Below the pieces are notes generated by a model that was not told where the DNA came from, searched no databases, and saw nothing but the letters and a program-made list of their open reading frames with translations. DNA of 49,482 nt from Pseudomonas sp. GM78. Lineage in GTDB: Bacteria > Pseudomonadota > Gammaproteobacteria > Pseudomonadales > Pseudomonadaceae. Shown here one piece after another: positions 14,256 to 43,939 of the stretch; the stretch's first letter is position 1; every line of letters starts with the position of its first letter. A program made the position numbers and the translations under genes. The stretch is taken from NCBI RefSeq assembly GCF_000282475.1, contig NZ_AKJF01000013.1, positions 1 through 49,482 on the forward strand, given 5' to 3'.

Positions 14256-14590
14256 TTGCAAGCCAGATCAAAAGATCGCAGTCTGAGACAGATCCGCAGG
14301 GAATAGGGCTGCCGGCGCCATCAATCAACCGTCGCATGAAGAACGGTCGATCACGCAGCTATCATTGTTGAAAGAGACAAGAGGGCTCTGAGCTGGCAGC
14401 CCCCCCCCCAAAGGAGGGGGGGAGTAGGGATGGCTTGCCCTCACTATCGCCGCATTCAATTTGGAGTGCGCCCATTCCTGCCCATTCTTTCGAGTTAACG
14501 GCTGGATGGATCATTACACCGGCGCCGTTTTCAACAATGTTACGTCCTGTTCGGATCTTCCTCAGACGAGCAGGGGATCGGAGATTCGGT
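14256..14590. other. Leader of the LAL regulator gene
   Basis: This gap of 335 bases holds a common Pseudomonas-type intergenic fragment (AGATCAAAAGATCGCAG near 14269), then a run of ten C (14400-14409) facing G-runs, and a CTATCG at 14444-14449. Together these form the proposed autoregulatory promoter of the LAL gene. The frame is open from 14435 into the gene, but no good start exists before 14591. Confidence 0.6.
14400..14449 (+). promoter_or_regulatory. LAL-type operator and -10, site 1 (regulator's own promoter)
   Basis: A ten-C run is followed by AAAGGAGGGGGGGAG, giving a C/G inverted repeat centred near 14412. CTATCG starts at 14444, 32 bases further on. This matches the arrangement of the other sites in the cluster, implying autoregulation. 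The homopolymeric C tract could vary in length by slippage. Confidence 0.55.
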
Positions 14591-17284
14591 TTGCAAATTA
14601 ATACCGACAAACTGCTGGTTTCGACCAAGTTCGCCCCTCCGCGAATCGGCACCCAATCGATTCCCCGCAGCAGGCTGATAGAAGAACTGCAGCGAATCGA
14701 GCACTGTACCGTCGGCCTTGTCATCGGCAGTCCGGGATTCGGCAAGACCACCTTGCTGGTGCAGTGGCGCCAGACCATGATGCGCGCTGGCGCCGAAGTC
14801 GCCTGGTTGTCACTGAGCGCCGACGACAAGCATCTCTCGACTTTTTTTGCCTATTTGCGCGGTGCATTGCAGCGCCTCGGTGTGACCATCGACACGGGCA
14901 CTCCGCTGGAGGGTGCCAGCAGTGAGTCGATTGACGAAATCGTCGCCGCCATCGTCGATGCGGCTTCCAATGTGAACAAAGAGCTGTACCTGGTGCTCGA
15001 CGATTACCAGCATGTCGCGGATCCGCGCTCGCACCGATTGATGCAAAAACTGTTCGATCACAGCCCTGAGAACCTGCATTTCGTGATTGCTGCGCGCGTT
15101 CAACCACCCTTGAGTCTCAGTCGGCTGCGACTGATGGGGCAGGTGGTGGAACTTGACTGTGCAGCGTTGCCGTTCGATTTGACGGAAACCCGCGCCTTCC
15201 TTGAATTGAATCTGGCAGCGCTGAAACTCCACGAGGAGGAAATCCACCTGACCCACGAGCTCACCAGCGGTTGGCCTGCCAGCCTGCAGTTGATCGTGAT
15301 CCTGCTGCGCAGCAACCCTGGAGCGCGGGCGAGCCTGCATGAACTGGGCTGGAAATCGGATGACCTGCAAAGCTATCTGGCTGAGGATGTGATGGCGCAT
15401 CTACCGGAGGCGTTGGCGGACTTCATGGAGGCGGTCAGTATTTGCCGACGCTTCAATGCCTCCCTGGCAGAGGCAGTGACAGGCAACGCCAGTGCCGCGC
15501 AGATGCTCAACCGGCTTGAAGAAGAAAACCTGCTGATCTTCCGTGTCGAAGCCGATGATCGCTTGCCCTGGTATCGCTTCCATCCGCTGTTCAGTGAATT
15601 TCTTGCCACACGTCTGATTCGGCGCAATTCGCAGAATGTCGCGCAATTGCATCAGCGTGCGGCGCATTGGTTCGCTGAACGCAAACTGCTGGCCGAGGCC
15701 ATGCGTCATGCCACGTCGGGCGGGGATCTGGGGTTCGCCGTTGAAGTCATCGAGCGGGCGGCGCCGACCACTTGGGGCCTGGATCAACTGAGTCCGCTTC
15801 TGCGCTTGCTCGACCGACTGCCGCAGGAGGTTTTGTTCTCCAGGCCCCGGTTGTTTTTCCTCGGCTGCCTGGCCTATGCCTTGACGGCACGGCCGGCGAA
15901 GGCTGAGGCGTGGCTTGAGCAATTCAAGCGAAGTGGCGCTGCGCAGCACGAAGACGTGGCGTTCCGCCTGCCGCTGGTGCAGGCGGTCATCCACGTTCAG
16001 CGCGATCGTACCGAGCCGGTCATTGCCTTGCTCGAAGGATTCCAGCCGCTGATCGACGATTACTCGATCATGCGCTACGGCCCACCGACCATGTTGGCAC
16101 TGGCCTATTCCGCGGCGGGACGGCACGCCGATGCGCTGCGTTGTCTCGACGACCACCCGATTCCCGAGGTCGATCGCAACGACGAGATGGCGCTGCTTGC
16201 AGAAGGTACCCGGACCCTGTGTTGCCTGATGGAAGGCAAGATGCTCGAAGCCGAACGCAGAGGCCTGGCGCAATTGACCCGCGCCGTGACCGCGCACGGA
16301 CATCGTTCGGCCAGTGCCTACACCGGAGCCTCCGCCCTGGCTGAGATTTATTGTGAACTGGACCGGATCGACGAGGCACGTGAAGTCCTGGCCAATCGCA
16401 ATGGGCTGCTGCAGTGGACAATGCCCGACTCAATGATGCGCGCCAGTATTTGCCGTGCCCGTCTGGATCTTTTGCAAGAGTCTGCGGCCACGGCGCTGGC
16501 CTTCCTCGAACGCCAGGAACGGCACTTTCGCAGTATCGGTCAGGATCGCGCTCTGGTGCATTGTCTCGCCGAGCAGGTGCGCATTGAATTGCTCGAGGGT
16601 GATCGCGCTAACGCGGGCGTGCATGTCGCGCAGCTCGATGTGCTTGGCCAGGCACATCAAGGGGCGGACGGGTTCCAGGCAGAAATTCCGGCGATGGTCG
16701 CCCTGGCCAAGGCACGGCTGCTTCTGGCGACCAACTATCCGGACAATGCTTTGCTGGAACTGCAGCACGTTCGTCGTTATGCCCAACACTATCATCGTGG
16801 CCAATTGGGGGTGACCGCATTGCTGCTGATGGGCATTGCTCATGCAGACCTGCGACAGCAGGACGCCGCCGACGATTTACTGATCCAGGCATTGGAAACC
16901 GGGCAGCGACTGGGCCTGGTACGCACTTTTCTCGACGAGAGTGCGGCGCTGTATCCAATGCTGGCGCCGCTGGCCGACAGGATCGCCCCTGGCAGTTCGT
17001 TGACGGTTTTTCTGCAAGACCTGCTGCCGCGTTTCGAGCAGGGCAAGTCAGGTGCGCACTCGGGCGATGGCAGCGCTTCGGCGGGTCAGAAGACCTTGAC
17101 CCCACGCGAGCTGGCGATCCTGCAATTGATCAGCCAGGCCATGTCGAACAAACGGGTGGCGTTGACGTTGAGTATTTCGCTGGAAACGGTGAAATGGAAC
17201 CTGAAGAACGTGTTCTTGAAACTCGGTGTTTCCAGTCGTTACGACGCTGTCTCCTGGGCGCGCAAGCACGGCTTGATTCCCTGA
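14591..17284 (+). CDS. MalT-like LuxR-family (LAL) ATP-dependent transcriptional activator
   Basis: This 897-residue protein has the large MalT/LAL layout. The N-terminal ATPase has Walker A GSPGFGKT (residues 46-53). A long helical, TPR-like sensor region spans roughly residues 350-800. The C-terminal LuxR helix-turn-helix occupies the last ~60 residues (LTPRELAILQLISQAMSNKR, SLETVKWNLKNVFLKLGV). I chose the TTG at 14591: it has GGAG seven bases upstream, and conserved homology starts right after it (LLVSTKFAPPR). Upstream candidates lack ribosome sites. LAL proteins bind an inducer and ATP, then activate promoters through G-rich boxes. The G/C-run inverted repeats at six cluster promoters are its likely targets. 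It is the probable master regulator of 17572-43757. Confidence 0.9.
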   Translation: MQINTDKLLVSTKFAPPRIGTQSIPRSRLIEELQRIEHCTVGLVIGSPGFGKTTLLVQWRQTMMRAGAEVAWLSLSADDKHLSTFFAYLRGALQRLGVTIDTGTPLEGASSESIDEIVAAIVDAASNVNKELYLVLDDYQHVADPRSHRLMQKLFDHSPENLHFVIAARVQPPLSLSRLRLMGQVVELDCAALPFDLTETRAFLELNLAALKLHEEEIHLTHELTSGWPASLQLIVILLRSNPGARASLHELGWKSDDLQSYLAEDVMAHLPEALADFMEAVSICRRFNASLAEAVTGNASAAQMLNRLEEENLLIFRVEADDRLPWYRFHPLFSEFLATRLIRRNSQNVAQLHQRAAHWFAERKLLAEAMRHATSGGDLGFAVEVIERAAPTTWGLDQLSPLLRLLDRLPQEVLFSRPRLFFLGCLAYALTARPAKAEAWLEQFKRSGAAQHEDVAFRLPLVQAVIHVQRDRTEPVIALLEGFQPLIDDYSIMRYGPPTMLALAYSAAGRHADALRCLDDHPIPEVDRNDEMALLAEGTRTLCCLMEGKMLEAERRGLAQLTRAVTAHGHRSASAYTGASALAEIYCELDRIDEAREVLANRNGLLQWTMPDSMMRASICRARLDLLQESAATALAFLERQERHFRSIGQDRALVHCLAEQVRIELLEGDRANAGVHVAQLDVLGQAHQGADGFQAEIPAMVALAKARLLLATNYPDNALLELQHVRRYAQHYHRGQLGVTALLLMGIAHADLRQQDAADDLLIQALETGQRLGLVRTFLDESAALYPMLAPLADRIAPGSSLTVFLQDLLPRFEQGKSGAHSGDGSASAGQKTLTPRELAILQLISQAMSNKRVALTLSISLETVKWNLKNVFLKLGVSSRYDAVSWARKHGLIP

Positions 17285-17287
17285 AGC

Positions 17288-17343
17288 CCTGCGGTCGACG
17301 CCGCCCATGTAGTTGCGTGGACTGCATGGGCGGGCGTCCGCAG
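17288..17343 (+). terminator. Long hairpin after the LAL gene
   Basis: CCTGCGG and CGCCCATG on the left pair with CATGGGCG and CCGCAGG on the right, with small internal mismatches. The hairpin starts just after the stop codon. There is no clear T-run, so the terminator assignment rests on the stem. A further CCTCCC/GGGAGG repeat at 17386-17404 may be part of the next promoter region. Confidence 0.45.
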
Positions 17344-17468
17344 GTGTGCAACAGCCGCAGCTTAAGGTTTTCGCCGAATACCGGGCCTCCCCGTTTCAGG
17401 GAGGTCCACACCATTCCCCTGCAGCCTGCGGCAGTTCCTTCAGGGGGGTGCAGGTTTCGATCGATTCC

Positions 17469-17513
17469 CCCCTCTCCCTGAGGGGTACAGCAGGCAGGGT
17501 GCATTTCCTATCG
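17469..17513 (+). promoter_or_regulatory. LAL-type operator and -10, site 2 (beta-oxidation operon 1)
   Basis: CCCCTC-N5-GAGGGG at 17469-17485 is a perfect inverted repeat centred at 17477, and CTATCGTGG starts at 17508, 31 bases on. If CTATCGT covers the -10, the repeat centre falls near -42, the class II activator position. The operator CCCCTCTCCCTGAGGGG and the 16-mer GCATTTCCTATCGTGG are identical to those at site 5, before the paralogous acyl-CoA dehydrogenase. Translation starts 64 bases downstream. Confidence 0.7.
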
Positions 17514-17571
17514 TGGTATCGACAAAGCCGGTTTGAACCGGCGCGTAGATCCAGCCCTTAGGAGATGCTTC

Positions 17572-18714
<1,143 letters not shown>

Positions 18715-18739
18715 TCACCGCGCAATCGAGGAATTTGCC

Positions 18740-19891
18740 ATGGAATATCTGATCCCCCGGACCTTGTTCAGCTCCGAACACGAAGATTACCGCCGCCTTA
18801 CCCAGCGTTTCCTGGCAGACGAAGTACTGCCGTTTCACGCACAGTGGGAAAAGGAAAAACGCGTGCCTCGCGAAATCTGGCGTCGCGCCGGTGAGCTGGG
18901 CCTGCTACTGCCGTGCATTCCGGAAGAATACGGTGGCTACGGCGCAGACCGCCTGTACTCGATGGTCATCGGCGAGGAGTACATGGGCTCCGGCGCTTCC
19001 GGCCTGGGCATCGGCTTCGGCGTGCACGCACTGGTGGCCGGTTACATCCTGCATTACGGCAGTGAGCAACAGAAACAGACCTGGTTGCCGAAGATGGTCT
19101 CCGGTGAAGCCATCGGTTCGATCGCGATGACGGAACCCAACACCGGCTCCGACCTGCAAGCGGTCAAGACCCGCGCTGTGCGCGACGGCGACGACTACGT
19201 CATTACGGGTTCCAAGACCTTCATTTCCAACGGCGTGCAGTCGGATCTGGTAGTGGTCGTCTGCAAGACCGGCACCACTGGCACCGCCAGGGACATCTCG
19301 CTGATCATCGTCGAGAGCGGTCGCGACGGTTATGCCAAATCGCAGCCTCTGGAAAAGATCGGCCTGCATGCGCAGGACACCTGCATGTTGTTCTTCGACA
19401 ACGTGCGTGTGCCGTGCAGCAATCTGCTGGGCCCGGAGGAGGGCAAGGGCTTCGGTCAGCTGATGCGCGACCTCGCCTGGGAGCGTATCAGCGGTGCCAT
19501 CGGCTTCCAGGCCCAGGCCGAAGCTGCGCTGCGCCACACCGTCGACTACACCAAAGGCCGCACGGTTTTCGGCAAGCCGGTCTTCGATTTCCAGAACTCG
19601 CGTTTCAAGCTCGCTGAATTGAAGACTGAAATCCAGATCGGCCGATCCTGGGTCGACAGCTGCATGGAACTGGCCCTGCGCAACGAGCTGACACCCGAAG
19701 CCGCAGCCATGGCCAAGCACTGGACCGCCGAGTTGAGCCTGCGCGTGGTCGAGGAATGCCTGCAGTTGCACGGCGGCAACGGCTACATGACCGAATACCC
19801 GATCGCACGCCTGTTCCTCGATACCCGTGGTAACCGCATCTGGGGCGGCAGCCGCGAAGTCATGAAAGAAATCATCGCTCGCACCCTGTAG
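18740..19891 (+). CDS. Acyl-CoA dehydrogenase (paralogue 2)
   Basis: This 383-residue acyl-CoA dehydrogenase is related to but distinct from its upstream neighbour. It shows SIAMTEPNTGSD, GSKTFISNGVQSD, DTCMLFFDNVRVP and QLHGGNGYMTEYPIARLFLD. As in the neighbour, the C-terminal Glu position is replaced (RIWGGSREVMKE), and the AWER segment probably supplies the base. GAGGAA lies seven bases before the ATG. It starts 25 bases after the first enzyme, so the two are cotranscribed. They may form a heteromer, as described for some steroid side-chain dehydrogenases, or act on successive chain lengths; sequence alone does not decide. Confidence 0.92.
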   Translation: MEYLIPRTLFSSEHEDYRRLTQRFLADEVLPFHAQWEKEKRVPREIWRRAGELGLLLPCIPEEYGGYGADRLYSMVIGEEYMGSGASGLGIGFGVHALVAGYILHYGSEQQKQTWLPKMVSGEAIGSIAMTEPNTGSDLQAVKTRAVRDGDDYVITGSKTFISNGVQSDLVVVVCKTGTTGTARDISLIIVESGRDGYAKSQPLEKIGLHAQDTCMLFFDNVRVPCSNLLGPEEGKGFGQLMRDLAWERISGAIGFQAQAEAALRHTVDYTKGRTVFGKPVFDFQNSRFKLAELKTEIQIGRSWVDSCMELALRNELTPEAAAMAKHWTAELSLRVVEECLQLHGGNGYMTEYPIARLFLDTRGNRIWGGSREVMKEIIARTL

Positions 19892-19947
19892 GGGCGGGCA
19901 GCGCAGTCTCGCTGCGCAATCCAATTACCTGAATGTGCTGTCTGCGG

Positions 19948-19971
19948 TGCCCGACTCCGGGGAGTCGGGCA
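19948..19971 (+). terminator. Intra-operon hairpin
   Basis: Arms TGCCCGACTCC and GGAGTCGGGCA (11 bp each) surround two bases, with no following T-run. The hairpin lies between the second acyl-CoA dehydrogenase and the MFE-2-like gene and may stabilise or process the operon mRNA. Confidence 0.4.
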
Positions 19972-20013
19972 GCCGGTAACCAACAACAATACCCATTGGG
20001 AAGGAGAGTCACC

Positions 20014-22254
20014 GTGTCACAAGAACTTCGTTTTGACGGCAAAGTAGCCATTGTCACCGGTGCCGGTAACGGCCTGGGCCGTGCCCACGCACTGCTGCTG
20101 GGCTCGCGTGGCGCCAAGGTCGTGGTCAACGACCTGGGTGTGAACCTGCAGGGCGTAGGCGTTTCGTCTGCCGCTGCCGACGCCGTGGTTGCCGAGATCA
20201 AGGCCATGGGCGGCGAAGCCGTCGCCGACTACAACTCGGTTGCCGAAGGCGAGAAAATCGTCGCCACCGCGCTGGAAGCCTTCGGCACCGTTGATATCCT
20301 GATCAACAACGCCGGTATCCTGCGCGACGTGTCGTTCGCCAAAATGACTGAAGAACAGTGGGACCTGATTCAGGAAATCCACGTCAAGGGCGCGTTCAAA
20401 CTGACCCACGCCGTGTGGCCGATCATGCGTGAAAAGGGCTACGGCCGCATCATCATGACCGCTTCCGGTGCCGGCATTTTCGGCAACTTCGGTCAGTGCA
20501 ACTACTCCACCGCCAAATCCGGGCTGATCGGCTTCGCCAAGTCCCTGGCCTTCGAAGGCGCTTCGAAGAATATTCGCGTCAACACCATTGCCCCGATTGC
20601 GGCGTCCCGCCTGGTGATCGCCAGCGGCATCCTGCCGGAAGACGTTCACGCCAAACTGGCTTCCGAGCACGTCGCGCCGCTGGTCAGCTGGTTGTGCCAC
20701 GAAGAGTGCCCGGAAACCGGCGGCCTGTTCGAAGTCGGTGGCGGCTTCCACGCCAAGTACCGTTGGGAACGGTCCCAGGGCCGAGTGCTGCACACCGACA
20801 CCCTGAGCCCGGAGCTGGTGCGTGAAAACTGGGAGCGCATCACCCAGTTCGACGAACACAGCGTGCACCAGTCCAATGGCGGCGAAGGCTTCCAGGAGCT
20901 GTTCTCGCGCCTGGATTCGCCAGCCAAGGGTGGCAACCAGTATGTGGACATGGAAGTGGCAAGCAATGCCGTGTCGACCCTGGAAACCGAGTACAACCAG
21001 ACCGACGCCGCACTTTACGCATTGGCCGTGGGCGCTGCGAAAGACCCTCTGGACGAGACCGAACTGTTGTACATCAACGAGTTCAAGGACGAAGAGTTCC
21101 GCGTACTGCCAACCATGGCCGTGCTGCCGGCGACCCAGGTCTTCCTGCAAGCCATCAAGTCCGGCAAGCCGAGCCTGGAAGGCCTGGAGCTGCCGTTCGC
21201 CAATGGCCTGCATGGCGAGCAGTACACCGAGATGTACCGCCCGTTGCCACCGGCCGCCAAGCTCAAGCACACCATGCGTCTGAAGCAGGCGATCGACAAG
21301 GGACGCAGCTCCGTTTCGATCCTTGCGGTGGAGACCACTGACGAGAACGGCGTACCGCTGTACTACAACGAAATCACCAGCTTCTACGCCGGTGTGCCGG
21401 GCGCCGGTCTGGAAAAAGTGCCTAGCGTTGCGCTGCCCGAACTGCCGGCGCGCGCACCGGATGCGGTGATCGCCGAACAAACCGATATCAACCAGGCCTT
21501 GTTGTATCGCCTGTGCGGTGACTGGAACCCGATGCACGTCGATCCGGATTACGCCAAGGCTGCTGGCTACGACAAACCGTTCCTGCACGGTCTGTGCACC
21601 TTCGGTTATGCCGGTCGTCATGTGATCAAGGCGTTCTGCAACAACGATTCGCGCCTGTTCAAGAGCATCCGCGTGCGTTTCGCTTCCATCGTCATGCCGG
21701 GCGATACCCTGGAAACCCGCATGTGGCGCGAGACGCCGACCCGCGTGGTGTTCGAGATGCGTGCGGTTGAGCGTGACGTGGTGGTGCTCAAGGGCGGCGT
21801 CGTGGAAATCTTCGACAAAGTCCCGGACCTCGCGTCCCTGACCAACGCTTCCAAGGAAGAGCCGAAGACCCTGACCGCCCACGACGTGTTCAGCGTGTAC
21901 AAGGCGCACCTGCAGGCTCACCCGGAAATCGCCGCCGAAGCGCAGATGATCATGCAGTTTGTGGTCAAGAACCGCGAGTCCAACTGGGTACTCGACCTGA
22001 AGAACGGCAAGGGCGACCTGTATGAAGGCGTTGCGGACAACGCGGACGTGACCATGACCATCCAGGAAGCGAACATGCCGGAGCTGGCTTCGGGCGAGGA
22101 ACCGCAACTGCAGAAGCTGTTCTTCGGCGGCAAGCTGAAGTTGACCGGTGACACCATGGCTTCGAAGAAGCTGGAAGCGTTCGCCAGTATCGACAAGCAG
22201 CTGTACGCCGCTGCGACTGCCGAGCGTCTTGCCAAGGCGGTAACTTCGGCGTGA
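20014..22254 (+). CDS. MFE-2-like trifunctional protein: SDR dehydrogenase, hot-dog hydratase, SCP-2
   Basis: This 746-residue fusion has the order found in eukaryotic peroxisomal multifunctional enzyme 2. Residues 1-300 are an SDR 3-hydroxyacyl-CoA dehydrogenase (TGAGNGLG at 15-22; Ser151, Tyr164, Lys168). Residues about 325-600 form a double hot-dog 2-enoyl-CoA hydratase 2 with the catalytic pair in GDWNPMHVD (Asp503, His508). Residues about 625-735 are an SCP-2 sterol/lipid-binding domain (FFGGKLKLTGD). It would carry out hydration and (3R)-hydroxyacyl dehydrogenation of bulky or branched enoyl-CoAs. I chose the GTG at 20014, with GGAGAG upstream; the open frame before it is unrelated. It follows two acyl-CoA dehydrogenases in the same operon and supplies the next two beta-oxidation steps. 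Confidence 0.92.
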   Translation: MSQELRFDGKVAIVTGAGNGLGRAHALLLGSRGAKVVVNDLGVNLQGVGVSSAAADAVVAEIKAMGGEAVADYNSVAEGEKIVATALEAFGTVDILINNAGILRDVSFAKMTEEQWDLIQEIHVKGAFKLTHAVWPIMREKGYGRIIMTASGAGIFGNFGQCNYSTAKSGLIGFAKSLAFEGASKNIRVNTIAPIAASRLVIASGILPEDVHAKLASEHVAPLVSWLCHEECPETGGLFEVGGGFHAKYRWERSQGRVLHTDTLSPELVRENWERITQFDEHSVHQSNGGEGFQELFSRLDSPAKGGNQYVDMEVASNAVSTLETEYNQTDAALYALAVGAAKDPLDETELLYINEFKDEEFRVLPTMAVLPATQVFLQAIKSGKPSLEGLELPFANGLHGEQYTEMYRPLPPAAKLKHTMRLKQAIDKGRSSVSILAVETTDENGVPLYYNEITSFYAGVPGAGLEKVPSVALPELPARAPDAVIAEQTDINQALLYRLCGDWNPMHVDPDYAKAAGYDKPFLHGLCTFGYAGRHVIKAFCNNDSRLFKSIRVRFASIVMPGDTLETRMWRETPTRVVFEMRAVERDVVVLKGGVVEIFDKVPDLASLTNASKEEPKTLTAHDVFSVYKAHLQAHPEIAAEAQMIMQFVVKNRESNWVLDLKNGKGDLYEGVADNADVTMTIQEANMPELASGEEPQLQKLFFGGKLKLTGDTMASKKLEAFASIDKQLYAAATAERLAKAVTSA

Positions 22255-22302
22255 GAAAAGCTGCCTCGCCAATCAATTCAGGTTGATCGGTGAGGCCACG
22301 AC

Positions 22303-22343
22303 GCTGCCGCTGGTGCTTCGGTGCTGGCGGCAGCCTTTTGTTT
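22303..22343 (+). terminator. Terminator-like hairpin between MFE-2-like and thiolase-like genes
   Basis: Arms GCTGCCGC (22303-22310) and GCGGCAGC (22327-22334) are followed by CTTTTGTTT. A second imperfect stem (CCTCGCCAATCAA with TTGATCGGTGAGG) lies just upstream. The hairpin would reduce expression of the downstream thiolase-like gene relative to the dehydrogenases. Confidence 0.6.
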
Positions 22344-22358
22344 CGGGAGAACCACTAC

Positions 22359-23534: not shown

Positions 23535-23592
23535 CCTTGAGGCAAATAGCCTTGCGCACGATACGGCATGCGACAACCCGATTAAAATAATC

Positions 23593-23609
23593 AGGCGGCT
23601 ACACCGCCT
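23593..23609 (+). terminator. Short hairpin before the ligase gene
   Basis: AGGCGG-N5-CCGCCT followed by TCAAAA lies 20 bases before the ligase start. It is small, so attenuation rather than full termination is likely. Confidence 0.35.
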
Positions 23610-23629
23610 TCAAAATCGTAGGACCTGTC

Positions 23630-25330: not shown

Positions 25331-25406
25331 CTCGGGCCATGACGCACGTGGCTTCGGCTACGTGCGTACTTTTCAAACCGAGCCATTTCCTTGCAGGCCA
25401 TTCCCC

Positions 25407-25850
25407 ATGTCCAAACCTGTTGCCCATACGCGTGAGGCGTATCGTTATTTCCGTCCGATCCAGACGCGCTGGATGGACAACGACGTTTACGGCCATATCA
25501 ATAACGTCAACTACTACAGCTACTTCGATACGGTTGTGAACGGCTTTTTGCTGAGTGAAGGCCTGCTCGATTATGAGCGTGGCGAGACCATCGGCCTGGT
25601 GGTCGAAACCCAGTGCAACTACTTTGCCCCGATTTCGTTCCCCGATGTCATCGATGCAGCGGTGCGAGTCACCCAGATCGGTGGTTCGAGCGTGCGCTAT
25701 GAAGTTGGGTTGTTCCGTGAAGGCGAGCCGTCAGCGGCTGCGCAGGGGCACTTCGTGCATGTCTATGTGGGGCGCGAATCGCGTCGTCCGGTAGCTCTAT
25801 CAGACGCGATGCGCACAGCACTTGACCGTCTTGTCGTTGATGCGCAATGA
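25407..25850 (+). CDS. Acyl-CoA thioesterase, 4HBT hot-dog family
   Basis: This 147-residue single hot-dog protein has the 4-hydroxybenzoyl-CoA thioesterase-type motif RWMDNDVYGHINNVNYYSYF, with the catalytic Asp in DNDVYGH, and VVETQCNYFAPISFPD in the next strand. Such enzymes hydrolyse acyl-CoAs and often relieve CoA sequestration in degradation operons. I chose the ATG at 25407 because the family homology starts right after it. The frame upstream overlaps the end of the ligase gene. It ends the first plus-strand operon, with a hairpin following. Confidence 0.86.
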   Translation: MSKPVAHTREAYRYFRPIQTRWMDNDVYGHINNVNYYSYFDTVVNGFLLSEGLLDYERGETIGLVVETQCNYFAPISFPDVIDAAVRVTQIGGSSVRYEVGLFREGEPSAAAQGHFVHVYVGRESRRPVALSDAMRTALDRLVVDAQ

Positions 25851-33459: not shown

Positions 33460-33467
33460 ACGACATG

Positions 33468-33555: not shown

Positions 33556-33558
33556 CGA

Positions 33559-34926: not shown

Positions 34927-34952
34927 GCTGTTTTTCCTCTGTCTGACGCTGG

Positions 34953-36803: not shown

Positions 36804-36993
36804 GAGGCGCTCCAATTGCAAAATTCAGAACGACGGGAAGTCAGTCAAGGTGACCGGGATGTTCGCGGCGGTTGAGCGGACGAGAGCAGCAGCGCATGGC
36901 TGTGGCGGAGTTGGATGTGATGCAGTGCGGACGAGAGTCACGTTGCGGCTACCTGTGAGATTTTTGTTTTTGTTTTTGGTCGAGCTGGGGGCA

Positions 36994-37040
36994 ACGCTAA
37001 TCGCAATGCACGCAAACGCTGCCCCCTCGGGGAGAGGGGG
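36994..37040 (-). promoter_or_regulatory. LAL-type operator and -10, site 6 (DUF1302-DUF1329)
   Basis: CCCCCTC-N5-GAGGGGG at 37022-37040 is a perfect inverted repeat centred at 37031. Reading the minus strand, TTAGCGT (five of seven matches to CTATCGT) begins at 37000, exactly 31 bases from the centre. The inferred transcript would run 36803-ward with a leader of about 185 bases. Confidence 0.5.
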
Positions 37041-37116: not shown

Positions 37117-37165
37117 CCCCCTCGACAGGAGGGGGCAGGATTCAGGCCGGTTTACGTGACTATCG
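37117..37165 (+). promoter_or_regulatory. LAL-type operator and -10, site 4 (thiolase operon)
   Basis: CCCCCTC-N5-GAGGGGG at 37117-37135 is a perfect 7-bp-arm inverted repeat centred at 37126. CTATCG starts at 37160, 34 bases on, slightly longer than at the other sites. The thiolase start codon lies 79 bases downstream. Confidence 0.62.
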
Positions 37166-37238
37166 ATCCAGGGGTTGCTGTGATCGCCGCCAGACCAACG
37201 CGACGAGCGGAGCCTTTCAACTGACCTTGGAGAAAATG

Positions 37239-38426
37239 ATGTCGCAGAAAACTTACGTAGCCGGCGTCGGCATGATTCAGTTCACCAAGCCTGGTGCCAG
37301 CCTCAGCTATATCGAGATGGGCGCGCAGGCCATTCGCCTGGCCCTCAAAGATGCAGGCGTTGATTACAACCTGGTGCAGCAGGCCTATGCCGGCTATGTG
37401 TACGGCGACTCCACCAGTGGCCAGTCGGCGCTGTACGAAGTGGGCTTGAGCGGTATCCCGGTGGTCAACGTCAACAACAACTGCGGCAGCGGTTCGACCG
37501 CCCTGTACCTGGCTCGCCAGGCTGTGGAAAGCGGCGCCGTCGATTGCGCCCTCGCGTTCGGTTTCGAGCAGATGCAGCCGGGCGCGCTGAAGGATCACTG
37601 GCTGGACCGTCCAGGCACTTACGGCAAGGGCATGGCTGTGTCGAGCCAGATCTTCCCGGAGGGCGATGCCATGCCGAACGCGCTGCGCCTGTTCGGCGGC
37701 GCCGGCAAAGAGCACATGGAAAAGTACGGCACCAAGATGGAGACCTTCGCGGCGATTCGCGCCAAGGCCAGCCGTCACGCCGCCAACAATCCGCTGGCGG
37801 TGTTCAAGAAAGTCATCACCACTGAAGACGTGATGGCCGACCAGGTGATTTTCCCGGGTGTGATGACTCGCCTGATGGCTTGCCCGCCGACCTGTGGCGG
37901 TGCTGCGGCGATTATCGTTTCCGAGCGCTTCGCCAAGAAACATGGCCTGCGCACCGACGTGACCATCCTCGCCCAGTCGCTGGTCACCGATAAGCCGGAC
38001 GCGTTCGATCCGCCGTCGATGATCAGCATCGTCGGTGTCGGCATGACTCAGCGCGCCTCGCAGGAAGTCTACGAAAAAGCCGGTGTCGGTCCGGAAGACA
38101 TTCGTGTTTGCGAAATGCACGACTGCTTCGCCCAGAACGAACTGCTGACCTACGAAGGCCTGGGTTTCTGCCCCGAAGGCGGCGCCGAGAAATTCGTGAT
38201 GGACGGCGACAACACCTACGGCGGCCAGGTCGTGGTCAACCCGTCGGGCGGCCTGCTGTCCAAGGGCCACCCACTGGGCGCCACCGGTCTTGCACAGTGC
38301 TATGAGCTGACCCACCAGCTGCGCGGTAGCGCCGGCGACCGTCAGGTCGAAGGTCTGCAACACGCATTGCAACACAACCTGGGTCTGGGCGGCGCAGGCA
38401 TCGTGACCCTGTTCGGTCGCGGCTGA
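37239..38426 (+). CDS. Thiolase (SCP-x-type acetyl-CoA acyltransferase)
   Basis: This 395-residue thiolase-superfamily enzyme has an intact active site. The nucleophile is Cys82 in NNNCGSGSTAL, with HDCFAQNE, GHPLGATG and the C-terminal HNLGLGGAG also present. It should cleave 3-ketoacyl-CoA with CoA, the last beta-oxidation step, and the SCP-x type often accepts branched substrates. Two ATGs are adjacent. The second (37239) has GGAG six bases upstream, so I use it. It begins the second plus-strand operon behind LAL site 4. It is the intact homologue of the Cys-less protein at 22359 and may do the thiolysis that the latter cannot. Confidence 0.92.
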   Translation: MSQKTYVAGVGMIQFTKPGASLSYIEMGAQAIRLALKDAGVDYNLVQQAYAGYVYGDSTSGQSALYEVGLSGIPVVNVNNNCGSGSTALYLARQAVESGAVDCALAFGFEQMQPGALKDHWLDRPGTYGKGMAVSSQIFPEGDAMPNALRLFGGAGKEHMEKYGTKMETFAAIRAKASRHAANNPLAVFKKVITTEDVMADQVIFPGVMTRLMACPPTCGGAAAIIVSERFAKKHGLRTDVTILAQSLVTDKPDAFDPPSMISIVGVGMTQRASQEVYEKAGVGPEDIRVCEMHDCFAQNELLTYEGLGFCPEGGAEKFVMDGDNTYGGQVVVNPSGGLLSKGHPLGATGLAQCYELTHQLRGSAGDRQVEGLQHALQHNLGLGGAGIVTLFGRG

Positions 38427-38434
38427 TCAGCTGT

Positions 38435-38462
38435 ACGCGCGCTCGCTTCGAGCGCGCGTTTT
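38435..38462 (+). terminator. Terminator-like hairpin after the thiolase gene
   Basis: ACGCGCGCTCG-CTT-CGAGCGCGCGT is a perfect 11-bp stem followed by TTTCCC. It starts nine bases after the stop codon and 29 bases before the next start, so it probably sets a higher thiolase level than the downstream genes receive. Confidence 0.65.
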
Positions 38463-38490
38463 CCCAATCACCTGCAAGGAACCCAGTGCA

Positions 38491-38931
38491 ATGGCAGACA
38501 TCAGTCTGATCGGCCGTTCGCTCGGCGTGACCACTGCCGAGCTGGAGAAGGGGCGCCTGCGTTTCTTCGCCAAATCCATCGGCGAAACCGATCCTGTCTA
38601 TACCGACGAAGCGGCGGCCAGGGCGGCGGGGCACAAATCCCTGCCGATGCCGCCGACGTTCCTGTTTTGCCTCGAACGCGAAGGCCGCGATACCGACCAC
38701 ATCATCGAAGGCATCATGGGTTTCGACCTCGGTCGCATCCTGCATGCCGAGCAAAGCTTCACCTATCACCGGATGGCGTACGCCGGCGACGTGCTGACGT
38801 TCGATTGCCGCGTGGTCGACGTCTACGACAAGAAGAACGGCGCGCTGCAATTCGTGGTCAGCGAGACCCGCGTGACCAACCAGCTGGGTGAGCACATCGC
38901 CGACGTTCGTTCGTCGGTGGTGCAGCGCTGA
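38491..38931 (+). CDS. Hot-dog dehydratase subunit, FAS1-like/MaoC N-terminal type
   Basis: This 146-residue single hot-dog protein resembles the non-catalytic half of two-part (R)-hydratases (HadA- or ChsH-like). The conserved region reads SIGETDPVYTDEAAARAAG. The Asp-x4-His catalytic pair is not present: the His position is occupied by Tyr (DPVY). The next gene encodes the MaoC half with Asp37 and His42 intact, 10 bases on. The two probably form a heterodimeric enoyl-CoA hydratase/dehydratase in which this subunit shapes the acyl pocket. A ribosome site AAGGA precedes the ATG. Confidence 0.85.
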   Translation: MADISLIGRSLGVTTAELEKGRLRFFAKSIGETDPVYTDEAAARAAGHKSLPMPPTFLFCLEREGRDTDHIIEGIMGFDLGRILHAEQSFTYHRMAYAGDVLTFDCRVVDVYDKKNGALQFVVSETRVTNQLGEHIADVRSSVVQR

Positions 38932-38941
38932 GGAGCAGACC

Positions 38942-39361
38942 ATGACGATCCCTCGATACAGCGAACTGCAGGTGGGCGATGCCTTGCCGCCGTTGCAGCT
39001 GCCGCCGATCAATCGCACCACGCTAGCGTTGTATGCCGGCGCCTCCGGCGATCACAACCAGGTGCATATCGATCTCGATTTCGCACGCCGCTCGCGCCAG
39101 CCCGATGTGTTTGCCCACGGCATGCTGTCGGCCGCTTACCTCGGTCGCCTGCTGACCGGCTGGGTGCCGCAAGCGCAAATCCGCTTCTTGTCGATGCGCT
39201 TTGTCGGCATCACCCAGCTTGGGCATATCCCGCACCTGACCGGGCGCATTGTCGAGAAATACGAAGCCAACGGTGAAAAGCGCGTGCGCGTGCAGATCCA
39301 GTGCAACAACCAATACGGCGAACCTCGCCTGACCGGTGACGCCGTCGTCGCCCTGGCGTGA
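38942..39361 (+). CDS. MaoC-like (R)-specific enoyl-CoA hydratase, catalytic subunit
   Basis: This 139-residue MaoC hot-dog protein has the hydratase 2 motif YAGASGDHNQVHIDLDFARR, with catalytic Asp37 and His42, followed by AHGMLSAAYLGRLL. It should add water to a trans-2-enoyl-CoA to give the (3R)-hydroxyacyl-CoA. I chose the ATG at 38942, with GAGGAG upstream; the longer frame overlaps the preceding gene. It is coupled to the FAS1-like subunit and followed by an SDR that could oxidise the (3R)-hydroxyacyl-CoA. This duplicates, in separate proteins, the activities of the MFE-2-like fusion at 20014. Confidence 0.9.
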   Translation: MTIPRYSELQVGDALPPLQLPPINRTTLALYAGASGDHNQVHIDLDFARRSRQPDVFAHGMLSAAYLGRLLTGWVPQAQIRFLSMRFVGITQLGHIPHLTGRIVEKYEANGEKRVRVQIQCNNQYGEPRLTGDAVVALA

Positions 39362-39395
39362 ACTCAATTACAAAAACATTGGCAGGAACCCAACA

Positions 39396-40223
39396 ATGAA
39401 AAAGCTCGAAGGTAAAGTCGCCCTGGTCACCGGCTCCGGCCGTGGGATCGGTCGCAGCGTGGCGCTGAAACTGGCCAGCGAAGGAGCGCGCATCGTGGTC
39501 AACGATCTGGACGCCGCGCCGGCCGAAGAAGTGGTTGCAGAAATACGCGCTGCTGGTGGTGACGCGGTTGCCTGCGTGGGCAGCGTGACGGCCGTTGACT
39601 TCGCCGACCGCCTGGTCAAGACCGCGATGGACAGTTACGGCACCATCGACATCATCGTCAACAACGCCGGTTACACCTGGGACAGCGTGATCCAGAAGAT
39701 GACCGACGAGCAGTGGTACGCGATCATCGATTGCCACATCACCGCGCCGTTCCGCATCCTGCGCGCGGCTCAGCCGATCATCAGTGCGGCGGCCAAGCAA
39801 GAGGCGGCCGAAGGTCGCGTGGTCAATCGCAAGATCGTCAACATCTCCTCGGTATCGGCCGCCGGCAATGCCGGCCAGGTCAACTATTCCACGGCCAAGG
39901 CCGGTGTGTTGGGCATGACCAAGGCACTGTCCAAGGAGTGGGGACGCTACAAGGTCAACGTCAACGCGGTGGCTTTCGGTCACATCGAAACCCGTATGAC
40001 CCTGCCGGTGGAAGGTGATCCGAAGTTCATCAATATCGAGGGTCGGGAAATCAAGGTCGGCATCAGTCCGGCTGTTGTCGAGTCCTCAAAAACCATGATT
40101 CCGCTGGGCCGTCCCGGCAACCCTGACGAAGCGGCCAACGCCGTGTACCTGTTCTGCATTCCGGAATCGGACTACCTGTCGGGCCAGGTATTGGTCTGCG
40201 GTGGCGGCCTGGGTACGGTTTGA
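39396..40223 (+). CDS. SDR-family 3-hydroxyacyl-CoA dehydrogenase-like protein
   Basis: This 275-residue short-chain dehydrogenase has cofactor motif TGSGRGIG (residues 12-19), NNAG (89-92), and catalytic Ser152, Tyr164 and Lys168 in NISSVSAAGNAGQVNYSTAK. A NDLDA acidic residue after strand 2 favours NAD. It resembles the SDR part of the MFE-2-like fusion and FabG-type (3R)-hydroxyacyl dehydrogenases. I chose the ATG at 39396, with AGGAA upstream; family homology starts there. An insertion (AKQEAAEGRVVNRK) before the catalytic strand is a little unusual. It follows the two hydratase subunits and is closed by a strong hairpin. Confidence 0.9.
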   Translation: MKKLEGKVALVTGSGRGIGRSVALKLASEGARIVVNDLDAAPAEEVVAEIRAAGGDAVACVGSVTAVDFADRLVKTAMDSYGTIDIIVNNAGYTWDSVIQKMTDEQWYAIIDCHITAPFRILRAAQPIISAAAKQEAAEGRVVNRKIVNISSVSAAGNAGQVNYSTAKAGVLGMTKALSKEWGRYKVNVNAVAFGHIETRMTLPVEGDPKFINIEGREIKVGISPAVVESSKTMIPLGRPGNPDEAANAVYLFCIPESDYLSGQVLVCGGGLGTV

Positions 40224-40235
40224 TCAGAAAACAAC

Positions 40236-40262
40236 GGCGACCGTGTTGCACGGTCGCCTTTC
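40236..40262 (+). terminator. Terminator-like hairpin after the SDR gene
   Basis: GGCGACCGTG-TTG-CACGGTCGCC is a perfect 10-bp stem followed by TTTCCC. DUF2889 begins 25 bases later with its own ribosome site, so partial read-through is implied unless a promoter is hidden here. Confidence 0.65.
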
Positions 40263-40286
40263 CCGACTCCGGCGCGAGGCTGTTCG

Positions 40287-40871
40287 ATGACCGACGACGA
40301 AGCAACCACTCCTGTGCGGCAACTGCTGCATACCCGCACCGTCACCTGCACCGGCTATTTACGCAGCGACGGCCTGTTCGACATTGAAGGACGCTTACTG
40401 GACATCAAGGGCAGAGAAACCGAAATGCCCTTTGGCACCATTGAGGCCGGCGGGGCGCTGCATCAGATGGTCATCGTGATGACCGTGGACGCCAACCTTG
40501 TGATCCAGCACGTGGAAGCACGCTCCGAAATCACGCCCGCGCCCATGTGCAAGCAGATCAGCCACGCCTACGCGGCATTGAAGGGCTTGAAAATCGGTGC
40601 CGGGTTCAAACAACGGGTGACAGAACGCGTCGGCGGAGAGCGCGGCTGTACGCATCTGACCGAATTGCTTGGCCCCATGGCCACCACCCTGATCCAGACC
40701 ACCGCACCGTTGTTGCGTGAACAGATGCGCCTACGCGAGACCCGCGAGCCTGGTTTCAAACGCCCGAAGCACTGGGTCATCGGCACCTGCCACACCTATC
40801 GCACCGATGGCGAAGCCGTGCGCACGCTGTGGCCGGACCATTACGAGCCCGGTCCATCAGGAAAAGATTGA
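40287..40871 (+). CDS. DUF2889-family protein
   Basis: This 194-residue protein belongs to DUF2889, a small family with no established activity, found repeatedly beside steroid, terpene and fatty-acid degradation genes. Features are the TRTVTCTGYLRSDGLFDIEG start, the GCTHLTELL motif and a GTCHTYRTDGEAV C-terminal segment. Conserved Cys and His residues could bind a metal. GAGG lies eight bases before the ATG. There is no signal peptide, so it is cytoplasmic. Its place between a beta-oxidation SDR and a sulfatase supports a role in this catabolic route, otherwise unknown. Confidence 0.88.
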   Translation: MTDDEATTPVRQLLHTRTVTCTGYLRSDGLFDIEGRLLDIKGRETEMPFGTIEAGGALHQMVIVMTVDANLVIQHVEARSEITPAPMCKQISHAYAALKGLKIGAGFKQRVTERVGGERGCTHLTELLGPMATTLIQTTAPLLREQMRLRETREPGFKRPKHWVIGTCHTYRTDGEAVRTLWPDHYEPGPSGKD

Positions 40872-40938
40872 ACCTGGCCATGTTGTGACATCGAAAACCT
40901 GTGCTGATCCCAACGAATAACAACAATGGAGATGCAAG

Positions 40939-42504
40939 ATGAAGTGCACTAAAACATGGCTGCCTGCTTTACTATTTGCCACTTTGATGTGGGGCTGGGG
41001 TTCTACTGCGCTGGCCGCCGATAAACCGAACATCCTGGTGATCTTCGGCGACGACATCGGTTTCTCCAATCTAAGTGCCTACAACCAGGGCATGATGGGT
41101 TACGAGACGCCGAACATCGATCGCATCGCCAAAGAGGGCGTGCTGTTCACCCATGCCTACGGCGAGCAGTCCTGCACTGCCGGGCGCTCGGCGTTTCTGC
41201 TCGGCGAGCATCCGTTCCGCACCGGTTTGTTGACCATTGGCATGCCCGGCTCCGAGCACGGCATTCCGGATTGGGCACCCACCATTGGCAACGTCATGAA
41301 GCAGCAGGGCTACACGACCGGGCAGTTCGGCAAGAACCATATGGGCGACCGTGACAAGCACCTGCCGACGCAGCATGGTTTCGACGAGTTTTTCGGCAAC
41401 CTCTACCACATGAATGCCGAGGAAGAGCCCGAGACCTACTACTACCCGAAAGACCCTGAGTTCCGGAAAAAATACGGCCCACGCGGGGTGGTCCACTCTT
41501 ATGCCGACGGCAAGATCGAAGACACCGGCCCGTTGACCCGCAAGCGCATGGAAACCATCGACGAGGAATTCGTCCAGGCCACCGAGAACTTCATCGACAA
41601 GGCGCACCAGGCCGATAAACCGTTCTTCGTCTGGTTCAACAGCACCCGCATGCACGTCTGGACCCACCTGAGCAAGGAAGCCGACGGCAAGACCGGCATC
41701 GGCCTGTACCCGGACGGCATGGTCGAACACGACGGGCAGGTCGGTCAGTTGCTGAAGAAGCTCGACGAGCTGGGCATCGCCGACAACACCATCATCATCT
41801 ATACCACCGACAACGGCGCACAGAAGGTCAGTTGGCCAGATGGCGGCACCTCGCCGTTCAATGGCGAGAAGGGCACCACCAACGAAGGCGGGCACCGCGT
41901 GCCGCTGTTGGTGAAATGGCCCGGCGTGATCAAGCCGGGCAGCCATTTCAATAATCTGATCGCCCATAACGACTGGATGCCGACCCTGGCCGCGGCGGCC
42001 GGCCTGCCCAAGCTGCGCGAGGACCTTGCCAAGGGCACGACCCTGAACGGTAAATCGTACAAGGTGCATCTGGATGGATACAATTTCCTGCCTTTCTTCA
42101 AGGGTGAGGCCAAGGAGAGCCCGCGCGAGGAGTATTTCTACTTCGGCATGGGCGGCGAATTGAACGCGGTGCGCTGGCGTGACTGGAAGGTGACTTTCGC
42201 CAGCATGACCGGCTCCTTCGGTTCGGCGACCCGTACGGTCACCAATGTGCCCGTGGTTACCAATCTAAAGGCTGACCCCTTTGAGACAGCACGCCGGGAC
42301 TCGCCCATGTCGGCGCGATGGGCTGGCGATCAGATGTGGCTGTTCGTGCCGATCCAGGACAAGATCCAGGCGTTCATGGCCACCCTTGCGCAGTACCCGT
42401 TCCAGGAAGGTGTGAGCCTCAACGCGGCCAACATCAGCTATCAGAGTCTGGCGGTGAAACAGGCCATGATGAAGCTGCAGAAAATGACGCCACCCGCCAA
42501 CTGA
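40939..42504 (+). CDS. Exported type I sulfatase (arylsulfatase-like)
   Basis: This 521-residue sulfatase has a signal peptide (MKCTKTWLPALLFATLMWGW, then STALA) and an alkaline-phosphatase-like fold. Asp38-Asp39 (FGDDIG) bind the metal. The formylglycine motif is C79-T-A-G-R83, a CxAxR variant of CxPxR, followed by LLG. YTTDNGAQ carries further metal ligands. It should hydrolyse a sulfate ester in the periplasm after Cys79 is converted to formylglycine. No maturation enzyme is encoded in this window. GGAGATG precedes the ATG. Lying inside a lipid-oxidation cluster, it suggests that the natural substrate is or can be sulfated, such as an alkyl or sterol sulfate; this is inference. Confidence 0.9.
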   Translation: MKCTKTWLPALLFATLMWGWGSTALAADKPNILVIFGDDIGFSNLSAYNQGMMGYETPNIDRIAKEGVLFTHAYGEQSCTAGRSAFLLGEHPFRTGLLTIGMPGSEHGIPDWAPTIGNVMKQQGYTTGQFGKNHMGDRDKHLPTQHGFDEFFGNLYHMNAEEEPETYYYPKDPEFRKKYGPRGVVHSYADGKIEDTGPLTRKRMETIDEEFVQATENFIDKAHQADKPFFVWFNSTRMHVWTHLSKEADGKTGIGLYPDGMVEHDGQVGQLLKKLDELGIADNTIIIYTTDNGAQKVSWPDGGTSPFNGEKGTTNEGGHRVPLLVKWPGVIKPGSHFNNLIAHNDWMPTLAAAAGLPKLREDLAKGTTLNGKSYKVHLDGYNFLPFFKGEAKESPREEYFYFGMGGELNAVRWRDWKVTFASMTGSFGSATRTVTNVPVVTNLKADPFETARRDSPMSARWAGDQMWLFVPIQDKIQAFMATLAQYPFQEGVSLNAANISYQSLAVKQAMMKLQKMTPPAN

Positions 42505-42520
42505 GCACAGCGACAATCGT

Positions 42521-42566
42521 CCCCCTCTCCCTGAGGGGGACAGTACCCCCTCCGCATTTCCTATCG
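42521..42566 (+). promoter_or_regulatory. LAL-type operator and -10, site 5 (third acyl-CoA dehydrogenase)
   Basis: CCCCCTC-N5-GAGGGGG at 42521-42539 is a perfect inverted repeat centred at 42530, and CTATCGTGG starts at 42561, 31 bases on. The 17-base operator core and the 16-base GCATTTCCTATCGTGG are identical to site 2. Translation begins 54 bases downstream. It starts only 17 bases after the sulfatase stop. Confidence 0.7.
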
Positions 42567-42614
42567 TGGACACGCCGGCCGGCAATGTCCGGCTCTTGTC
42601 CCTGAGGAAATGTC

Positions 42615-43757
<1,143 letters not shown>

Positions 43758-43762
43758 TGAAA

Positions 43763-43796
43763 AATGCCGCTCTTCCTGCGATCGAAGAGCGGCATT
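43763..43796 (+). terminator. Hairpin after the third acyl-CoA dehydrogenase
   Basis: AATGCCGCTCTTC and GAAGAGCGGCATT form a perfect 13-bp stem with an 8-base loop, starting six bases after the stop codon. No T-run follows, but the stem is long enough to end or protect the transcript. Confidence 0.6.
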
Positions 43797-43893
43797 ATCG
43801 GTGGCGGAGCGACACTTGTCTTGTTGTTGAAATGTCGTCTCGGAGCGCAGCAACCGCAGCGTACTTGCGTCTGGCGGGGGCCGCATGATGGCC

Positions 43894-43939
43894 CCCCCTT
43901 GCTTCGAGGGGGGGGAGAGCGGTGGGGGCGTTTTATTGT
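43894..43939 (+). promoter_or_regulatory. Orphan LAL-type operator and -10, site 7
   Basis: CCCCCTT-N5-GAGGGGG at 43894-43912 is centred at 43903. TTATTGT (five of seven matches to CTATCGT) starts at 43933, 30 bases on. Downstream lies only a 17-codon frame (ATG at 43995, preceded by GAGGAGAG) that runs antisense into the 3' end of gntR. The promoter seems to have lost its gene. Confidence 0.45.

What the first reader, a model, noticed from the sequence alone, without database searches (positions are those of the whole stretch)
14400..43939. Shared promoter architecture suggests one LAL-controlled regulon across five transcription units
A C-run/G-run inverted repeat (best form CCCCCTC-N5-GAGGGGG) occurs upstream of the LAL gene, acyl-CoA dehydrogenase operon 1, iron alcohol dehydrogenase, DUF1302 (minus strand), thiolase operon and acyl-CoA dehydrogenase 3. 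A CTATCGT-like hexamer follows, with centre-to-hexamer distances of 32, 31, 31, 31, 34 and 31. Repeat centres near -42 fit class II activation. MalT-family activators are known to bind G-rich boxes. The regulator at 14591 is the only LAL gene in the window, so assignment to it is inference.
Basis: partly seen in the sequence, partly recalled or inferred. Interest (0 to 1): 0.78.

Follow-up and report, generated by a model that had tools for sequence, protein, structure and literature searches.

The report
A MalT-type regulator's catabolic regulon
A repeated DNA palindrome in front of several fat-breakdown-type operons is very probably the landing site of one large MalT-like activator protein, which appears to switch on two distant gene clusters at once, and the same protein-and-site pairing recurs in many related soil bacteria.

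Summary
Seven composite elements lie in the window: a CCCCCTC-N5-GAGGGGG-like palindrome, 20-25 nt, then a TATCGT-like hexamer. A model of the composite gives 14 own-genome hits at E<=0.05: 7 in the window, 6 in a second catabolic cluster (contig C132) without a LAL gene, 1 elsewhere; 9 of the 14 were training sites. Sites occur in 32 of 36 loci whose LAL is >=45% identical, 1 of 10 at 36-44%, 2 of 32 below. The 6 of 249 genus genomes with a strong site are all among the 8 carrying such a LAL. Beside 81 palindromes in untrained loci, TANNNT occurs 63 times at 21-23 nt, both flanks counted; background about 0.4 per offset. The palindrome thus ends near -34 of the predicted start, matching the Actinoplanes MalT palindrome TCATCC-N5-GGATGA (PMC7567727, passages read). 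Best reading: a LAL/STAND activator of a beta-oxidation regulon for an unidentified lipid-like substrate, acting class-II-like. New member of a known kind. No binding, start-site or mutant data exist.

The parts
14402..14420 (+). palindrome upstream of the LAL gene (long C and G runs, register ambiguous by 1-2 nt)
   Evidence: R1 hit 14401-14452, 33.1 bits, training site
14445..14450 (+). -10-like hexamer TATCGC for the LAL promoter
14591..17284 (+). LAL (MalT-like STAND/LuxR) regulator gene, TTG start taken, 897 aa; proposed regulator of all sites
17468..17486 (+). palindrome of acyl-CoA dehydrogenase operon 1
   Evidence: R1 41.3 bits, training site
17509..17514 (+). -10-like hexamer TATCGT
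17572..25850 (+). presumed operon 1: two acyl-CoA dehydrogenases, MFE-2/SCP2 protein, thiolase, AMP-forming ligase, 4HBT thioesterase
   Evidence: operon structure inferred from spacing
31521..31539 (+). palindrome (3 mismatches) upstream of the iron alcohol dehydrogenase-TetR unit
   Evidence: R1 35.6 bits, training site
31561..31566 (+). -10-like hexamer TATCGT
31640..33459 (+). iron alcohol dehydrogenase and TetR-family regulator genes
33559..36821 (-). DUF1302 and DUF1329 genes
36994..36999 (-). -10-like hexamer TAGCGT for DUF1302-DUF1329
37022..37040 (-). perfect palindrome of the DUF1302 promoter
   Evidence: R1 33.8 bits, training site
37117..37135 (+). perfect palindrome of the thiolase operon promoter, longer spacer
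   Evidence: R1 22.5 bits, not a training site
37161..37166 (+). -10-like hexamer TATCGA
37236..42504 (+). presumed thiolase operon: lipid-transfer-protein-type thiolase, two MaoC-type dehydratases, SDR, DUF2889, sulfatase
   Evidence: operon structure inferred
42521..42539 (+). perfect palindrome upstream of acyl-CoA dehydrogenase 3
   Evidence: R1 39.2 bits, training site
42562..42567 (+). -10-like hexamer TATCGT
42615..43757 (+). acyl-CoA dehydrogenase 3
43894..43939 (+). seventh composite site (palindrome + TATTGT) with no sizeable plus-strand gene behind it; orphan at the cluster edge
   Evidence: R1 36.2 bits, training site

Best explanation
The repeats are operators of the LAL protein encoded at 14591-17284. 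Inference from the family: on binding an inducer (unknown, probably the substrate or an intermediate) and ATP, the STAND protein oligomerises and its C-terminal LuxR-type HTHs bind the two G-rich half-sites GAGGGGG/CCCCCTC. Shown by sequence: the palindrome's downstream arm ends about 34-35 nt before the start predicted from the TANNNT hexamer, so it occupies the -35 region. Inferred: the LAL recruits RNA polymerase as a class-II-like activator. One site lies in front of the LAL gene and faces it (predicted autoregulation). The others would drive operon 1, Fe-ADH-TetR, DUF1302-DUF1329, the thiolase-sulfatase operon, acyl-CoA dehydrogenase 3 and, in trans, units of a second cluster on contig C132 (thiolase, Fe-ADH, alpha/beta hydrolase, LacI-type regulator with a histidinol-dehydrogenase-family gene, metallo-hydrolase; one C132 site has no clear target). 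The gene set fits uptake, desulfation, alcohol oxidation and beta-oxidation of a hydrophobic alcohol or its sulfate ester; the compound is not identified.
For: Own genome: 14 composite hits at E<=0.05, 13 on two contigs. Nine are training rows; C132:37734, 35335 and 48237, C13:37116 and C99:16379 are not. G002, not in training: 7 of 7 hits at E<=10 lie on the contig with its two LAL genes. Genus survey: the 6 of 249 genomes with a hit at E<=1e-3 are all among the 8 of 249 with a LAL at E<=1e-140; without the three training genomes, 3 of 3 among 5 of 246. Named loci: hits at E<=0.05 in 15 of 17 (LAL >=60%), 17 of 19 (45-59%), 1 of 10 (36-44%), 2 of 32 (<36%), i.e. 10.1, 8.5, 0.94 and 0.31 places per 100 kb. 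The loci include near-duplicates and several per genome, so they are not independent. Tree: 25 of 27 rows of one LAL clade have sites. Untrained loci: 81 palindromes in 718 kb against 4 in 638 kb of low-identity loci; TANNNT counts at offsets 21/22/23 = 39/13/11 over both flanks. Caballeronia: in the 38.7-kb stretch looked at, the three palindromes fall in three divergent gaps, one beside the LAL gene. Enterobacterales LALs about 30% identical: a C5-N5..9-G5 palindrome within 320 bp upstream in 6 of 14 loci and none in the other 312,615 bp. Published LAL with the same N5 palindrome ending 34.4+-1.0 nt from the start (PMC7567727).
Against: No binding, start-site or mutant data. The cluster's TetR gene co-occurs in 5 of 7 LAL-bearing genomes tested, so shared history of the whole cluster explains part of the correlation. 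LAL-positive genomes without strong sites exist (G015 none, G002 best E=0.04). Weak hits are common without a LAL: 50 of 249 genomes have some hit at E<=0.05, about four times what the rough E-values predict. Four of 36 loci with LAL >=45% have no hit at E<=0.05: L161 and L182 are short, L168 and L169 are not very short. Autoregulation is patchy: no model hit at E<=1 upstream of the LAL in L039, L042, L044 and L045, and in 11 of the 12 named loci with a site in the LAL's upstream gap the hit faces the neighbour. Paralogues at C94 and C109 (42% and 41%) carry the same TVKWNL(K/R)NI stretch but no model hit at E<=1 within 1.5 kb, so that stretch alone does not predict the operator. No site was found for the minus-strand MFS-ADH-LuxC operon inside the cluster.
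Confidence: 0.85

Rival explanations
1. The palindromes are operators of the TetR-family protein encoded at 32788-33459, in the Fe-ADH unit, acting as a repressor.
For: TetR proteins bind palindromes (established knowledge); a homologue at E<=1e-10 is present in 5 of 7 LAL-bearing genomes, mostly on site-bearing contigs.
Against: G214 and G243 have strong sites (E=1.2e-4 and 7.3e-4) on the LAL's contig and no TetR homologue at E<=1e-10. Of the 32 site-bearing named loci with LAL >=45%, 7 show a TetR homologue in the fetched flanks (E<=1e-20 and half the length). The Enterobacterales palindromes lie at LAL genes with no such TetR homologue in the locus. A fixed place at about -34 to -52 suits an activator better than a repressor (inference).
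Confidence: 0.06
2. The regulator is a LAL, but a paralogue (C94, C109 or the truncated C137 copy) rather than, or together with, the one in the window.
For: Paralogues share the recognition-helix stretch. The truncated C137 LAL has a palindrome about 150 bp upstream. Some 36-44% LAL loci hold scattered related palindromes.
Against: Sites follow the clade of the window LAL rather than the 36-44% LALs. The window LAL has a composite site of its own and lies inside the cluster. The C94 and C109 loci have no model hit at E<=1.
Confidence: 0.15
3. The palindromes are RNA hairpins (terminators or attenuators) or chance GC-rich palindromes.
For: Some genome hits clearly are terminators, e.g. C228:9478 with flanking A and T runs. 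One training site from G089 has a T-run in the spacer.
Against: The seven window sites have no T-run directly after the palindrome, and TANNNT lies at a fixed distance downstream in untrained loci. Palindromes are about 18 times denser in LAL loci than in control loci.
Confidence: 0.02

Closest known systems
MalT regulon of Actinoplanes sp. SE50/110 (ACSP50_3915; PMC7567727, abstract and passages read)
   Same: LAL activator inside the cluster it controls; palindromic operator with N5 spacer overlapping -35 at 17 start sites; 3' end 34.4+-1.0 nt from the start, here about 34-35 nt from the predicted start; many units in one region; palindrome conserved in relatives
   Different: half-site GGATGA there, GAGGGGG here; there start sites and a deletion mutant are known; gene content differs; here a second cluster in trans
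E. coli/Klebsiella MalT maltose regulon (MalT box GGGGA(T/G)GAGG as quoted in PMC7567727; the 1991 paper on two sites in direct repeat was seen only as a reference title in PMC8265627)
   Same: STAND LuxR-type activator with a G-rich box over the -35 region
   Different: MalT sites in direct repeat; here an inverted repeat. The protein is well below NCBI's MalT cut-off (313.8 against 537 bits)
AlkS of Pseudomonas putida GPo1 (PMC3664771, passages read)
   Same: LuxR/MalT-type activator of a hydrocarbon catabolic cluster in Pseudomonas with positive feedback on its own gene
   Different: alkane pathway; its operator sequence was not compared here

Membership tests
LAL / MalT-type STAND regulators | C-terminal LuxR-type HTH | tested here: met
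   GerE PF00196, 50.4 bits against cut-off 23.5
LAL / MalT-type STAND regulators | N-terminal STAND ATPase with Walker A | tested here: met
   aligned to solved E. coli MalT 8bob over residues 9-420, E 3.5e-43, with GxGKTT conserved; AAA_16 just under its cut-off (32.2 against 32.6)
LAL / MalT-type STAND regulators | MalT-like TPR/sensor region, total about 900 aa | tested here: inconclusive
   897 aa; TPR_MalT E 2.2e-8 but below its curated cut-off (34.2 against 45)
MalT proper | NCBIfam MalT equivalog cut-off | tested here: not met
   313.8 against 537 bits
MalT proper | operators as direct repeats of GGGGA(T/G)GAGG | tested here: not met
   the sites are inverted repeats CCCCCTC-N5-GAGGGGG; direct-repeat boxes were not searched for separately
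Actinoplanes-type LAL regulon | N5 palindrome ending about 34 nt before the start | tested here: met
   modal spacer to TANNNT of 21 nt gives -34 if T is at -12; the start itself is predicted, not mapped
Class II activator-dependent promoter | mapped start and activator contact with RNA polymerase | not testable with these tools
   no transcript data

The most novel reading that the evidence does not exclude
A LAL operator that works symmetrically: one palindrome bound by one STAND complex drives two divergent promoters at once. In the 38.7-kb Caballeronia stretch all three palindromes sit in divergent gaps with model hits in both directions (the weakest at E=0.12), and 11 of 101 distinct palindromes have TANNNT at 20-24 nt on both sides. 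A LAL with this operator would have replaced MalT's direct-repeat logic by a bidirectional switch and would control unlinked catabolic clusters as one regulon.
Probability: 0.3. Interest if true: 0.55.

Novelty: new member of a known kind. Interest (0 to 1): 0.42.

Why it matters
LAL regulators are numerous, but (as far as I recall) operators have been defined for few of them. Here a specific half-site, spacer and promoter geometry can be tied to one LAL clade in Pseudomonas and Burkholderiales, so regulons of uncharacterised catabolic clusters can be read from sequence and tested with one deletion mutant. It also predicts which unlinked genes (contig C132) belong to the same unknown pathway, which is a handle on its substrate.

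Tried and rejected
Palindrome alone at 3 mismatches: too weak by shuffles in the window, so the composite was used. Palindrome-only genome hits that look like something else: a terminator on C228 and a palindrome between convergent genes at C137:3931. C124:3823 is doubtful (R1 E=1.46). Identification of the substrate failed: three literature searches for the gene set held no paper; DUF1302 with DUF1329 gave 7 papers, of which I saw only the listing; the half-site with LuxR and MalT gave two papers, listing only; some searches were read as listings too, apart from the papers named above and PMC10427625 (passages). Only the open PMC library was searched. Whether 36-44% LALs use a variant palindrome gave isolated examples, not a rule. 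The tree was the quick method with long branches flagged; it held the window and 54 of the 78 named loci. Two rows were dropped for stops (L192, with sites, and L196, without). The other 22 were left out beforehand as near-duplicates, short or distant; they include L161 and L182, high-identity LALs without a hit at E<=0.05. L198 and L230 are counted, but their LAL did not give one long match. No structure prediction was run.
Full report
Observation. The palindrome family is real. In the window it occurs at 14402, 17468, 31521, 37022, 37117, 42521 and 43894. Each is followed by a TATCGT-like hexamer, on the minus strand for 37022. The palindrome alone is only moderately unusual in this 60% GC window. 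The composite is highly unusual: 5 strict cases against 0.15 expected.

Genome-wide test. In the 7.29-Mb genome the pattern with up to 2 mismatches occurs at 23 places, against 8 for the reversed control. At up to 1 mismatch there are 9 places: 6 in this contig, 2 on C132, 1 on C124. I aligned 17 composite sites from the window, C132 and two related genomes and built a covariance model, R1. R1 finds 14 places at E<=0.05: 7 in the window contig, 6 on C132 and one on C99. Nine of these were training rows; C132:37734, 35335 and 48237, C13:37116 and C99:16379 were not. C132 carries thiolase, sulfatase, MFS, iron alcohol dehydrogenase and hydrolase genes similar in kind to the window's, e.g. Fe-ADH 75% and MFS 70% identical. 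No LAL match at E<=0.001 was found on C132, so these sites would be controlled in trans.

Which regulator? The window LAL has the LuxR-type HTH, a STAND ATPase half that aligns with solved MalT, and 897 residues. It is not MalT itself. Three comparisons bear on it. First, among 249 genomes of the genus, the 6 with an R1 hit at E<=1e-3 are all among the 8 that have a LAL at E<=1e-140. Two of these, G214 and G243, were recognised as LAL carriers only after their sites had been found. Of the two LAL carriers without a strong site, G002 has a best hit at E=0.04 in that survey and G015 has none. In all, 50 of 249 genomes had some hit at E<=0.05, mostly single weak ones; this is about four times what the model's E-values predict, and those E-values are stated to be rough by about a factor of five. 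Second, in 78 named loci found by LAL similarity the hit rate falls from 32 of 36 to 1 of 10 to 2 of 32 as LAL identity drops below 45% and 36%. Three of the 36 come from training genomes, and several are near-duplicates. Third, on a quick LAL tree the site-bearing loci fall in one clade, 25 of 27 rows (fork support 100); two labelled rows, L207 and L220, lie elsewhere.

Confounding. Neighbouring genes travel with the LAL, so the TetR gene of the cluster was tested. It is found in 5 of 7 genomes but not in G214 or G243, which have strong sites, and in the fetched flanks of 7 of the 32 site-bearing loci with LAL >=45%. In Enterobacterales, LALs about 30% identical have C5-N5..9-G5 palindromes within 320 bp upstream in 6 of 14 loci, with none elsewhere in 312,615 bp; the 18 other low-identity loci give 1 upstream and 3 elsewhere. 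Counting a one-mismatch form in Brenneria (L203), palindromes go with 7 of 8 LALs of the HTH type KWHLKQ and 0 of 6 of the other type, KWH(L/I)KN. Those 8 are one clade on the tree, so this may be a single origin, and the split was noticed after looking. These loci share little with the Pseudomonas cluster except the LAL and generic SDR genes. This points to the LAL. It does not exclude other LALs of the same genome: paralogues on C94 and C109 share the recognition-helix stretch.

Autoregulation. The window site at 14402 faces the LAL gene. R1 hits facing the LAL also lie upstream of it in G027 (22.7 bits), G204 (14.3 bits) and G089 C125 (11.4 bits), but none lies upstream in L039, L042, L044 or L045. 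In 12 of 78 named loci a hit at E<=0.05 lies in the LAL's upstream gap; in 11 of them it faces the divergent neighbour (my count). Autoregulation is therefore likely for the window LAL and not general.

Promoter geometry. In loci not used for training, 81 distinct palindromes (<=2 mismatches) were found. TANNNT was counted on both flanks: 39 at offset 21, 13 at 22 and 11 at 23, against about 0.4 per offset elsewhere. In 120 composite sites, selected for a near-consensus palindrome and TANNNT, the arms are CCCCCTC and GAGGGGG and the hexamer is preceded by C (62%) and C (52%), with C (54%) as its fourth base; the fixed T, A and T are there by selection. With T at -12 and the modal 21-nt spacer the palindrome ends at -34 and its centre is at about -43. 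The published Actinoplanes MalT palindrome TCATCC-N5-GGATGA ends 34.4+-1.0 nt before mapped starts at 17 sites, and 42 of 51 genes of the region are less transcribed in a malT deletion (PMC7567727; abstract and passages read). The geometry is the same and the half-site differs.

Divergent use. In Caballeronia grimmiae plasmid p1 the LAL is 53% identical. In the 38.7 kb looked at, three palindromes fall in three divergent gaps (enoyl-CoA hydratase/LAL; 3-hydroxyacyl-CoA dehydrogenase/acyl-CoA dehydrogenase; SDR/CoA-transferase), with R1 hits in both directions at each, the weakest at E=0.12. Over 101 distinct palindromes 11 have TANNNT on both sides, 63 on one and 27 on neither. Bidirectional use is possible but not the rule.

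Function. The units encode three acyl-CoA dehydrogenases, an MFE-2/SCP2 protein, thiolases (one above the NCBIfam cut-off for lipid-transfer proteins), MaoC dehydratases, SDRs, a ligase, a thioesterase, an iron alcohol dehydrogenase, a sulfatase and DUF1302/DUF1329. By family knowledge this suggests beta-oxidation of a hydrophobic alcohol or its sulfate. The compound is unknown. For the zinc alcohol dehydrogenase, LuxC-type reductase and MFS operon on the minus strand no site was found.

Verdict. The regulon is wider than stated, and the LAL assignment is now well supported by comparison but lacks any experiment. It is a new member of a known kind, LAL/MalT-type activators with palindromic operators over -35. 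I did not see this half-site described for a LAL in the searches made, which cover only the open PMC library and were read mostly as listings.

Noticed in passing
own genome contig C137:3961-4896 (locus L019): A truncated LAL (311 aa, TPR and HTH only) whose HTH is nearly identical to that of a full-length LAL of genome G002, with a palindrome about 150 bp upstream. It lacks the ATPase half and may be a relic or an uninducible DNA-binding fragment.
   Followed up: partly
window 43894-43995: Strong composite promoter followed by a plausible ribosome-binding site and only a 16-codon reading frame, pointing into the 3' end of a minus-strand GntR gene; perhaps the scar of a lost regulon gene at the cluster edge.
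   Followed up: partly
locus L233 (Caballeronia grimmiae plasmid p1), 5790-5867, 17841-17917, 28871-28948: All three palindromes found in this stretch sit in divergent intergenic gaps, with promoter-like hits in both directions.
   Followed up: yes
loci L203, L208, L209, L215, L217, L220, L226: Enterobacterales (Klebsiella, Raoultella, Brenneria) LALs with ACCCCCC-N5-GGGGGGA-like palindromes upstream and TANNNT 21-23 nt away in the divergent direction.
   Followed up: partly
window 8274-9797 (minus): Gene with a CAP12/Pycsar-effector-type TIR domain followed by TPR repeats, near an AAA ATPase gene (6626-8113); may be a defence-type locus.
   Followed up: no
window 10319-10825 (minus): MazE-type antitoxin domain at the end of a 168-residue frame.
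   Followed up: no
window 11226-14255: Wax ester synthase/DGAT and ABHD18-like hydrolase genes whose homologues (74% and 71%) also lie on C132, as if the two clusters share ancestry.
   Followed up: no
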